54,404 nt of DNA from assembly GCA_009602725.1 (NCBI GenBank), contig WELB01000187.1:69192-123595 (forward strand), in the 5' to 3' direction. Source of the stretch: Spirogloea muscicola (Eukaryota > Streptophyta > Zygnematophyceae > Spirogloeales > Spirogloeaceae). The notes beneath the pieces were generated by a model. It was given only the letters and a program-made list of their open reading frames with translations, was not told the DNA's origin and made no database searches. Positions 31,601 through 34,600 of this stretch are shown in pieces; position 1 is the first letter of the stretch, and the number at the start of each line of letters is the position of its first letter. Position numbers and translations under genes: made by a program.

Positions 31601-34600
31601 AGTCAGACTGTTCTGCATTGTGTTTGGAAACTTGACGATAGTCAGTGAGCTCCAGTACAATCACTGTATAGAGAAGGTAGCAGGAGCAGAAGGCACACCT
31701 CCATTCTCCTCGTTTTGTACTGCACAAGTACTGTTCTCAGCTCTTGTAATTGGGCGTTTAGGGAGGCAACTTCTTGCTGCTCTGCATTTGAAAGCCCACC
31801 AGTCAACTCCGTCCCAACCTCGTCTCTCTTGCTTAACAGAAGTTCCTCGTACTCACGCACCAGCTTTCGAGCTTCAAGGATTGCCTTCTCCTGCATTTGC
31901 AGGCCACCAAACAGCTTGTGAGACTGGCAGATCTACAGCCTCAGCACCAGTTGAGAATGTTCCAACTCGTAATTCATTTGATTGCTCATTAGACTCATTC
32001 CCCACTATTGCTCTTACAGCAATGAGCCTGCTGTGCTAGTTGTCATGAGAGTCAGAATGACAGGCAGTGTACCTTCTGAGCAATGAATGTCTTGTTTGTA
32101 GACTCCTCAAGCCTGACTGCTTTCATGTCGTTTCTGACCTGTTCAGCTTCTTGCTGTTTCTCAACCTTCTCTGCTTCCACTTTCTGGATCTCACTAAGAA
32201 TGTGAGTGATTTTCTGATCAACCTGTGTGTCATAGTTAAGGTGACACCTGGGTATGGTGCAAAAGCAGCAAATACCTAAGACAAGATGGACAGTTGCTCG
32301 TGTTGACCTCTGCAGAGACTGTGTGAATTGGAGAGACTGCATCTTCTACTCTAAAAAGGGATATCTTGAAGATTTGTTCTGGTAGTAGAAAGTTGCTGTT
32401 CAATCTTGCCGGCTTTCAAAGTATTTTCACGGATGACCTTGACTAACTTCAATTTAGACCGCCGATGGTCATGGAAGCCTCCTGTCATTGCACCCTTTTT
32501 GGTGACTTGATCACCTGCATCAGAAAAGCAAGTCAATTCTCCTTTTTAAATAAGTTGTGGAATTTCATCTCTTGCAGGTCTTCAAAAGTAGTGCACATGT
32601 GCAGGGGGCTAGGCTTGCATATGCAGCAATCACAACGAGAGCAGAGCAAGCAGTTAACTACCTTCCATTGTGATACAGTCCAGGTCTGATGTTTTTGACA
32701 CACTAGTTGCTGTGTCAATGTCTCGACAGATCAAGGTCCTTGCAAAGACCTGGAAGTCAAGCATCAGATTAGGATACAACATTTTAGGGTCTGTTAACGC
32801 TCTCTATTAAGCAAGCTGAAGTAGAGCTGCCTCAATGGCAAGCCTGGAACAGCTCTGGTGATAGGAGTAAGAGCAGCCTAATGTGAGAAGAAAGTCTACA
32901 TACATGAGCGAAAGCGCTCTCAAAGTCCTTGTCATACTTGAGTCGCCTTAGAAGGGGTAAGACATTGTTGTTGTCACTTGGATATTTCACTGATGGGGCT
33001 CTCATCCTGTTTAGTGGCAGAAATGTAAGCCTTCCTGCTTTCTGTGCAAGCATGTACTTTATTATTTTGTGACTGATCTCGTCTGTTTCCACAACAATAT
33101 GAAACAGGCTGCAGAAAGCAGGGTAAATGTCAGCTACCAAACTGTGAAACCTGACCAATCCTTGGAGCAGCTTCCAATTACTTCTGCAAACGCGAACACA
33201 TAAGCAGTAGCACAGCAGTCTTGCAGGACTTCACTGAAGCTGTAGGTGTAATGTGTACAGATTTCGAGCAACTGCAACCCAATGCTTGTCTACAAAATCA
33301 CGTGTGTCTCACCTGTTACCAGCAGTAACCTCAACAGGAATGTTAAATTTATCTTCACAGTCAAGTAGCTCAATGAGAGGCCCATGTACGCCATCAATAT
33401 TGTGGTCTTTGCAGATTCTTTTCAAGGCTATCAGGCCCTTTCTTATGTCCTGTTGGCACTTATGTGAGAAGAGTGAGTTGTGCAGCAGAGCCAGATTAAG
33501 AGAGAGGCAAAGTAGCCGCCTTCAATGTGAACTTGCAAACTACAAGTTAGGTTCAAGTCTAGCTAATGATAACAAAAGAGTGACACGCACCCCTGGTGCA
33601 GCTATGTCCATAGCTTTAGTGGCTCGTGCGACCTCGTCATTGGCTTCGTCAAGCACCTTGATCAAGTCAGATTCTTCCTTCCACAGCTGTCTGCAACCAC
33701 GTGGTCTCAAGGTATAAGCTTTTGCTATGGCTGGCCTATCATCGAAGAGCAATAGGCTGGGTGCAGGAGTCGGTTTCAAGAACTTACTTTCTTTGCTCCT
33801 GAAGACCGTTGCGTTCAAGCCTGAGCTCCTGAAAAGACTGTGTACATCTGGCAACTTCCTGCTCAAGAGACTGCAGCACGGCAGTCTGACTGCTTGCTGT
33901 TGTTGAGGAAGTCCTTAGGGTCTCCCTGAGCTGGTCAATGTTGGACTGCAGTTCATGTATCTGAAATATTGTAGCACTTTCAATTGTGTCACTATTGGCA
34001 TCTCAATCCCAATTGTAGCCCAGGATCGATGTCACTACGATCAAGCCTACAGTCACACTCCTCTTTGTAAAAAATTACAGTACATTCCACATTCAGAGTA
34101 GATCAACTTTTGCTTCATGCTGCTGAGAATGAACAATGAGCATGACCAGAGCAGTGTAACAGCTGCAGCCAGAAAAGACCGTTCAAAACTGCAGACATTT
34201 CAAATGCACCTGCACTTGTTCTGCTTGGACCAAGCCCTGAAGCTCGCTGATCTCCTTCTCTAGGGCTCTATCACGGTCCTTCTTGGACGAGAATTGTGAA
34301 GCACGCCCTTCCTTTCGATAGTGATTGCTAAGTTGCCGCTCAATATCTGAAATCCTGGAGAAAAATGACATGATCGCTTGAGTCGGCCCAATTGCAGGTG
34401 ATGAAGGCCAGACTCAGGACAGCACTTTGCTGATGACCAACACAAAAGCTAGTGCCCTCAACTTCATTGACCTGTACGTACATAGTCAGAGCTCTTTCCT
34501 CTTCCGCTCGTGCTGCTTCATACTGCGAGCATACTCCAGTGAGCTCGCTAGTTGTAGACTGAATCTCTTGACGCAAGCTGTCCAGCTCTGTTTCCATCTC

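What the first reader, a model, noticed from the sequence alone, without database searches (positions are those of the whole stretch)
32225..32364. AT-AC U12-type intron inside SMC3
The intron starts ATATCC and ends AC, with a perfect CCTTAAC branch site 11 nt from its end. No U2-type alternative keeps the frame. This implies a working minor spliceosome in this organism, which is notable if it is a chlorophyte, because Chlamydomonas and its close relatives are thought to have lost it.
Basis: partly seen in the sequence, partly recalled or inferred. Interest (0 to 1): 0.8.

Follow-up and report, generated by a model that had tools for sequence, protein, structure and literature searches.

The report
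Minor-spliceosome introns in algal SMC3 gene

Summary
The intron is real. On the minus strand, SMC3 exon ...CTTCAAG is followed by ATATCCCTTT, a CCTTAAC branch site with its branch A 11 nt from the end, and AC|AGG, which restores the SMC3 reading frame. Three SMC3 copies were found; all three keep these signals. A second U12-type intron (GTATCCTTT...TCCTTGAC...AG, window 29198-28884) lies in the same gene, its signals invariant in the three copies. A third, AT-AC, sits in a Na+/H+ antiporter gene. U11, U12 and U6atac genes and CENATAC are present; U4atac was not found, inconclusively. The organism is a streptophyte, perhaps the triplicated zygnematophyte Spirogloea muscicola, not a chlorophyte, so the 'chlorophyte' surprise falls away. 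'No U2-type alternative keeps the frame' is wrong. Unexplained: the AT-AC intron's interior is nearly frozen across copies (8 of 105 columns differ, against 994 of 3252 in 23 other introns), as are 62 nt of the next intron, up to an alternative GTAAGAG donor. Gene conversion is not excluded.

The parts
32225..32364 (-). AT-AC U12-type intron of SMC3 (phase 1)
   Evidence: ATATCC...AC, frame-preserving, kept in the 3 gene copies found
32353..32364 (-). U12-type 5' splice site ATATCCCTTTTT
   Evidence: ATATCC invariant in 3 of 3 copies, C111 reads ATATCCTTTTT
32235..32243 (-). branch site CACCTTAAC, branch A at 32236
   Evidence: identical in 3 of 3 copies
32365..32513 (-). SMC3 exon upstream ([12 protein letters not shown]...TTRTNLQ)
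   Evidence: aligns to solved SMC3 chains
32073..32224 (-). SMC3 exon downstream (VDQKITHIL...FIAQK)
32011..32072 (-). conserved first 62 nt of the next (GT-AG) intron, ending at an alternative donor GTAAGAG (GT at 32017-32016); its use would add 55 nt with an in-frame stop
   Evidence: 2 of 62 columns differ among 3 copies, then 13 of the next 40
28884..29198 (-). second U12-type intron of SMC3, GT-AG, 315 nt, phase 1 (5' GTATCCTTTT; branch site GTCCTTGAC 28910-28902; branch A to AG 19 nt)
   Evidence: GTATCCTTT and the last 41 bases identical in 3 of 3 copies; joins [26 protein letters not shown]
28696..37423 (-). SMC3 gene, start MYIKQ to stop after NQQEA (exon chain set by eye and script, no transcript)

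Best explanation
32364-32225 is a genuine minor (U12-type) AT-AC intron in an SMC3 gene that this streptophyte alga (perhaps Spirogloea muscicola) holds in three copies. U11 pairs with CCCUUU (window) or CCUUUU (C111) at the 5' site, U12 with CCUUAAC bulging the branch A, U6atac then takes over the 5' site, CENATAC supports use of the AT-AC ends, and the AC 11 nt downstream is joined, leaving LQ-E-VDQ. The gene carries a second U12-type intron (GT-AG). Shown by sequence: the signals, the frame, conservation in three copies, the snRNA genes and CENATAC. Inferred: the pairings, actual splicing and the species.
For: Signals and frame; 3 of 3 copies keep ATATCC, CACCTTAACTATGACA and AC|AGG, although C111 has lost the AC two bases further upstream; second U12-type intron in the same gene; antiporter AT-AC intron in the 3 copies found; U12 80.1-81.1 bits, U11 45.8-59.6, U6atac 83.2-85.5, all above Rfam cut-offs; TATCCCA shared upstream of 9 of 10 snRNA hits (sequences, read by eye); CENATAC 99.2 and 97.9 bits. 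CENATAC is needed for AT-AN minor introns in human cells (PMC8280824, abstract and passages).
Against: No transcript data. U4atac not found by RF00618 (no control rang) or by one pattern. A consensus pattern over the genome gave 2 hits against 1 for the reversed control, so no genome-wide excess was shown; one of the 2 (L028) is unconvincing. The window's 5' site has C instead of T at +7, one mismatch to U6atac (pairing inferred). The minor-spliceosome proteins 65K, 48K, 35K, 31K, 25K and 20K were not searched. The full plant USE consensus, as I recall it, is matched only with 3 mismatches of 11 in U11 and U12 and is not among the two best matches in U6atac.
Confidence: 0.93

Rival explanations
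1. An addition rather than a contradiction: the AT-AC intron and the first 62 nt of the next intron form a conserved regulatory module around exon 32224-32073. Retention of the AT-AC intron, or use of the GTAAGAG donor at 32017, puts a stop in frame and lowers SMC3 output.
For: Interior differs in 8 of 105 columns against 994 of 3252 pooled in 23 GT-AG introns; the antiporter AT-AC intron and the second SMC3 U12 intron vary inside (28 of 110 and 139 of 350 columns differ), so it is not a general U12 property; conservation stops right after GTAAGAG; both predicted forms carry stops in 3 of 3 copies.
Against: Chosen after seeing the data; only three related copies. Against 4-fold sites of other exons the interior is not clearly slower (8/105 against 47/341: Fisher p 0.13, one-sided binomial 0.04). 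No folding signal (z 0.29) and no RNA family inside. Retained intron sequence often hits stops anyway.
Confidence: 0.3
2. On the frozen interior only: gene conversion among the three copies homogenised a tract of about 500 nt (32513-32011), which makes the intron look constrained.
For: 4-fold sites in the two flanking exons are also low (2 of 34 against 47 of 341), a similar proportional drop.
Against: That exon difference is not significant (p 0.29); the three pairs are about equally close (5.0-5.7% substitutions), needing repeated events with like boundaries; boundaries coincide with an exon start and a donor-like site.
Confidence: 0.3
3. The exons are joined by the major spliceosome with GT-AG sites, and the AT-AC match is chance.
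For: 79 in-frame GT-AG pairs exist.
Against: Each loses SMC3 residues upstream of 32365 that align with solved SMC3 chains; U12 signals kept in 3 of 3 copies; chance combinations 0.05 per window.
Confidence: 0.03
4. The AT-AC intron is excised by the major spliceosome (U2-type AT-AC).
For: Such introns exist: a passage of PMC8280824 speaks of 85 major AT-AC introns or related subtypes in its human data.
Against: Long U12 5' and branch consensus, no pyrimidine tract between branch site and AC, U11, U12 and U6atac present.
Confidence: 0.03

Closest known systems
U12-type (minor) AT-AC introns of streptophytes (Chara braunii, Klebsormidium nitens, land plants)
   Same: Same 5' and branch consensus, same snRNA kinds; minor introns were reported in Chara (166) and Klebsormidium (110) (PMC10639083, passages)
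   Different: The genome here looks zygnematophycean; Spirogloea, Mesotaenium and Zygnema have zero hits in the main text of that paper
Minor intron of human SMC3
   Same: SMC3 is a minor-intron gene in human; its intron is retained more in Roifman syndrome (PMC4667643, passages)
   Different: The human intron's position was not found here, so orthology with either intron is untested
U12 introns of Na+/H+ antiporter genes
   Same: Two positions shared by animals and plants are cited in PMC2426677 (passage); an AT-AC intron is present in the antiporter gene here
   Different: Position not compared with those two

Membership tests
U12-type intron | 5' site RTATCCTT (consensus recalled; also in PMC2846911 passage) | tested here: met
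   ATATCCCTT in the window (one mismatch), ATATCCTTT in C111
U12-type intron | branch site TTCCTTAAC-like, close to the 3' end | tested here: met
   CACCTTAAC, branch A 11 nt from AC, 3 of 3 copies
U12-type intron | AT-AC or GT-AG ends that keep the frame of a known protein | tested here: met
   LQ-E-VDQ
U12-type intron | excised by the minor spliceosome | not testable with these tools
   needs RNA
minor spliceosome | U11, U12, U6atac genes | tested here: met
minor spliceosome | U4atac gene | tested here: inconclusive
   none by RF00618 (no control rang) or by one pattern
minor spliceosome | CENATAC/CCDC84 | tested here: met
minor spliceosome | U11/U12 65K, 48K, 35K, 31K, 25K, 20K | not tested
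SMC3 | region after the hinge and C-terminal ATPase motifs | tested here: met
   6 of 6 PDB matches are SMC3, best E 3.9e-9; LSGGQK and [11 protein letters not shown] read (motif meaning recalled)
   one Lhca4-type exon: 247-268 bits to 16 chains recalled as mostly land-plant, about 161 to Chlamydomonas chains (best 60 of 604 shown; species recalled)

The most novel reading that the evidence does not exclude
The AT-AC minor intron of SMC3, exon 32224-32073 and a 55-nt exon extension ending at a conserved decoy donor (32017) are one conserved switch that ties cohesin supply to minor-spliceosome activity by unproductive splicing.
Probability: 0.25. Interest if true: 0.6.

Novelty: new member of a known kind. 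Interest (0 to 1): 0.4.

Why it matters
[quoted passage not shown] I saw no report for that class: one search found one paper (not opened, its title concerns U2AF65B), one search listed 12 of 360. Three copies of each gene make a natural test of which intron bases matter: signals stay, interiors vary in two of the three U12 introns examined, but hardly in the SMC3 AT-AC intron.

Tried and rejected
Chlorophyte origin: rejected by the LHC comparison (the LHCII exon separates groups less well). rbcL for identification: no match in the assembly. Structured or known ncRNA inside the intron: fold z 0.29, no family match inside at E up to 5; two weak snoRNA matches lie at the end of the preceding intron, 22.9 bits against a cut-off of 45 and 16.9 against 39. 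Coding interior: first stops differ between copies and there are two 1-nt gap columns. Genome-wide excess of U12 introns by pattern: 2 hits, 1 control, not shown. U4atac by a pattern built from U6atac pairing: none. L028 as a U12 intron: no convincing exon frame, branch A to end 15 nt. U11 hit L007 lacks the upstream element and is perhaps a relic.

Limits of the counts: intron borders were set by script (first GT after, last AG before chosen protein cores), 24 introns between 25 cores; introns further towards the C-terminus were not in that count. The 23 GT-AG introns gave 3252 interior columns; 3 of them are too short for the 60-column scan. Alignment columns are not independent, and the AT-AC intron was singled out after looking. 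One search aligned slightly different ranges (one row cut short) and no count rests on it.

Full report
What is there. The window is G000:C187:69192-123595 of a 153 Mb, 471-contig genome. On the minus strand it holds SMC3, from MYIKQ at 37423 to a stop at 28698-28696. CACCTTAACTATGACACAC|AGGTTGATC. The branch A is 11 nt from the end. Joining gives ...[17 protein letters not shown]..., and the joined stretch aligns through the junction with solved SMC3 chains (40 bits, best E 3.9e-9). The AG two bases on would give a stop, as read.

In the window copy 79 GT-AG pairs keep an open frame to the end of the downstream exon. All their donors lie at 32430 or further upstream, so each loses residues of SMC3. 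The case against them is homology and conservation, not the frame alone. Likewise 11 ends keep the frame with the ATATCC donor in that script; 32225 is the one that follows the branch site at the usual distance.

More than chance. The combination of 5' site, branch site and end was counted 2 times in the window, the two SMC3 introns, and 0.05 times on average in 100 Markov sequences (4 of 100 had at least 1, 1 had 2). The limits of that count were set after both introns had been seen. The second is a U12-type GT-AG intron at 29198-28884: GGCA|GTATCCTTTTG ... GGGTCCTTGACAAGCCCCTTGCTATCCAG|ACATG; it joins [26 protein letters not shown]. Its branch A lies 19 nt from the AG, which is long.

Three gene copies. 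A 100-aa SMC3 query matches two exons each on C187, C111 and C78, 6 matches in all. The second U12 intron keeps GTATCCTTT and its last 41 bases in all three (alignment; 3 of 51 columns differ over the last 50 nt). An independent U12 AT-AC intron was found in a Na+/H+ antiporter gene of the NHX5/6 kind (named by recall of conserved motifs)...VALSCAL|ATATCCTTTC ... TGTCCTTGACACAAGCCCAC|LFKYAGLSVYK, with these signals invariant in copies C58, C155 and C90. It was one of 2 hits of a genome pattern whose reversed control gave 1, so no genome-wide excess is claimed.

Machinery. RF00007 (U12): 3 hits, 80.1-81.1 bits. RF00548 (U11): 4 hits, 45.8-59.6 bits. RF00619 (U6atac): 3 hits, 83.2-85.5 bits (alignments). 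The U12 branch-pairing and U6atac 5'-site-pairing stretches agree with the family consensus there (read by eye). Nine of the 10 hits share TATCCCA upstream, read by eye from the sequences: at about -77 in U11 and U12, about -69 in U6atac; L007 (U11) has none. The script found TATA[AT] near -31 in the three U12 copies only; four of the other six copies with the element have CATAA near there, two have CATAG or CATGA. The full plant USE consensus as I recall it fits only with 3 mismatches of 11 in U11 and U12, and the script did not rank the U6atac element among its two best. So a plant-like promoter is a resemblance, not a test passed. CENATAC (PF14968) is present at two loci, 99.2 and 97.9 bits; in human cells it is needed for AT-AN minor introns (PMC8280824, abstract and passages). 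U4atac was not found (where no control genome rang either, one pattern). The U11/U12-specific proteins were not searched.

Which organism. rbcL is not in the assembly. LHC matches are many (68, exon by exon) and several come in near-copies. One exon scores 247-268 bits against 16 full-length Lhca4 chains, which I recall as mostly land-plant, 219-225 against two short ones, 185 against the next, and about 161 against chains I recall as Chlamydomonas (best 60 of 604 shown). An LHCII exon does not separate the groups as well. SMC3, the antiporter, U12 and U6atac were each found three times, U11 four times, CENATAC twice. Spirogloea muscicola has a genome triplication (PMC7994812, passages). A table row in PMC11096116 gives it 174, 566.4 and 17,449, which I read as Mb, N50 in kb and number of scaffolds (passage). 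G000 has 153 Mb in only 471 contigs; C78 is 617 kb and C111 463 kb. The size and N50 fit, the number of pieces does not unless short ones were dropped. I hold streptophyte at about 0.95 and Spirogloea at about 0.7 (lowered from 0.75 for the contig number); the species was not tested directly. The taxonomy places it in Zygnematophyceae.

What is in print. Green algae, with Chlamydomonas reinhardtii examined, were reported to lack U12 introns (PMC2846911, abstract and passages). Minor introns are reported in Chara (166) and Klebsormidium (110) (PMC10639083, abstract and passages); Spirogloea, Mesotaenium and Zygnema have no hit in its main text. Searches for U12-type intron with chlorophyte (0 papers), U11/U12 with Chlorophyta (1 paper on ataxin-2, not opened), U12 with Zygnematophyceae (1 paper on U2AF65B, not opened) and streptophyte algae with minor introns (12 of 360 listed) showed me no report for this class. 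SMC3 is a minor-intron gene in human (PMC4667643, passages).

The unexpected part. Among 24 SMC3 introns compared across the three copies, the AT-AC intron has 5.4% mean pairwise substitutions; the 23 others have 11.8-25.1%. Without the signals, 8 of 105 columns differ against 994 of 3252 pooled (Fisher p 2.7e-8, columns not independent, intron picked after looking). Its calmest 60 columns have 2 differences; the lowest of the 20 other introns long enough is 4, in the following intron. There 2 of 62 columns differ up to and including GTAAGAG, then 13 of the next 40. The other two U12 introns examined vary inside: 28 of 110 and 139 of 350 columns, the latter with 73 gap columns. Against a functional reading: 4-fold sites of other exons differ at 47 of 341, not clearly more than the interior (Fisher p 0.13, one-sided binomial 0.04), and the two flanking exons are also calm (2 of 34, p 0.29 against the others), so gene conversion among copies remains possible. 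Retention of the intron and use of the 32017 donor both give in-frame stops in all three copies. I see no folding signal and no known RNA inside.

Mechanism. Most likely U11 binds CCCUUU (window) or CCUUUU (C111) at the 5' site through its AUAAAGGG end, U12 binds CCUUAAC, U6atac replaces U11, and the AC at 11 nt from the branch A is used. The pairings follow from the sequences and established minor-splicing knowledge; none was measured. The regulatory switch is a proposal at about 0.25-0.3.

Verdict. A real U12 AT-AC intron, a second U12 intron in the same gene, and three of the four minor snRNAs plus CENATAC, in a lineage where minor splicing is expected. New member of a known kind, with one open oddity worth a look at RNA-seq.

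Noticed in passing
   Followed up: yes
L027 / L032-L034 (C58:447144, C155, C90): AT-AC U12 intron in a Na+/H+ antiporter gene, kept in three copies.
   Followed up: yes
L001-L010: TATCCCA upstream of 9 of 10 minor snRNA hits, about 8 nt nearer the start in U6atac than in U11/U12; U11 hit L007 has none and may be a relic.
   Followed up: partly
window 32011-32072 (-): Conserved intron start ending at a GTAAGAG donor-like site whose use would add a stop codon.
   Followed up: partly
window 39106-39597 (+) and 40064-40891 (-): Frames with AVDVRNAFNS in both orientations, resembling LINE-type reverse transcriptase by recall.
   Followed up: no
window 5564-6094 (+): Open frame with [23 protein letters not shown]..., resembles the start of an FAD-dependent ETF-QO-like protein (by recall).
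   Followed up: no
G000 (C187/C111/C78; C58/C155/C90): Genes in three diverged copies on different contigs, fitting a genome triplication.
   Followed up: partly
window 32513-32579 (-): Weak C/D snoRNA matches at the end of the preceding intron, far below the curated cut-offs.
   Followed up: no
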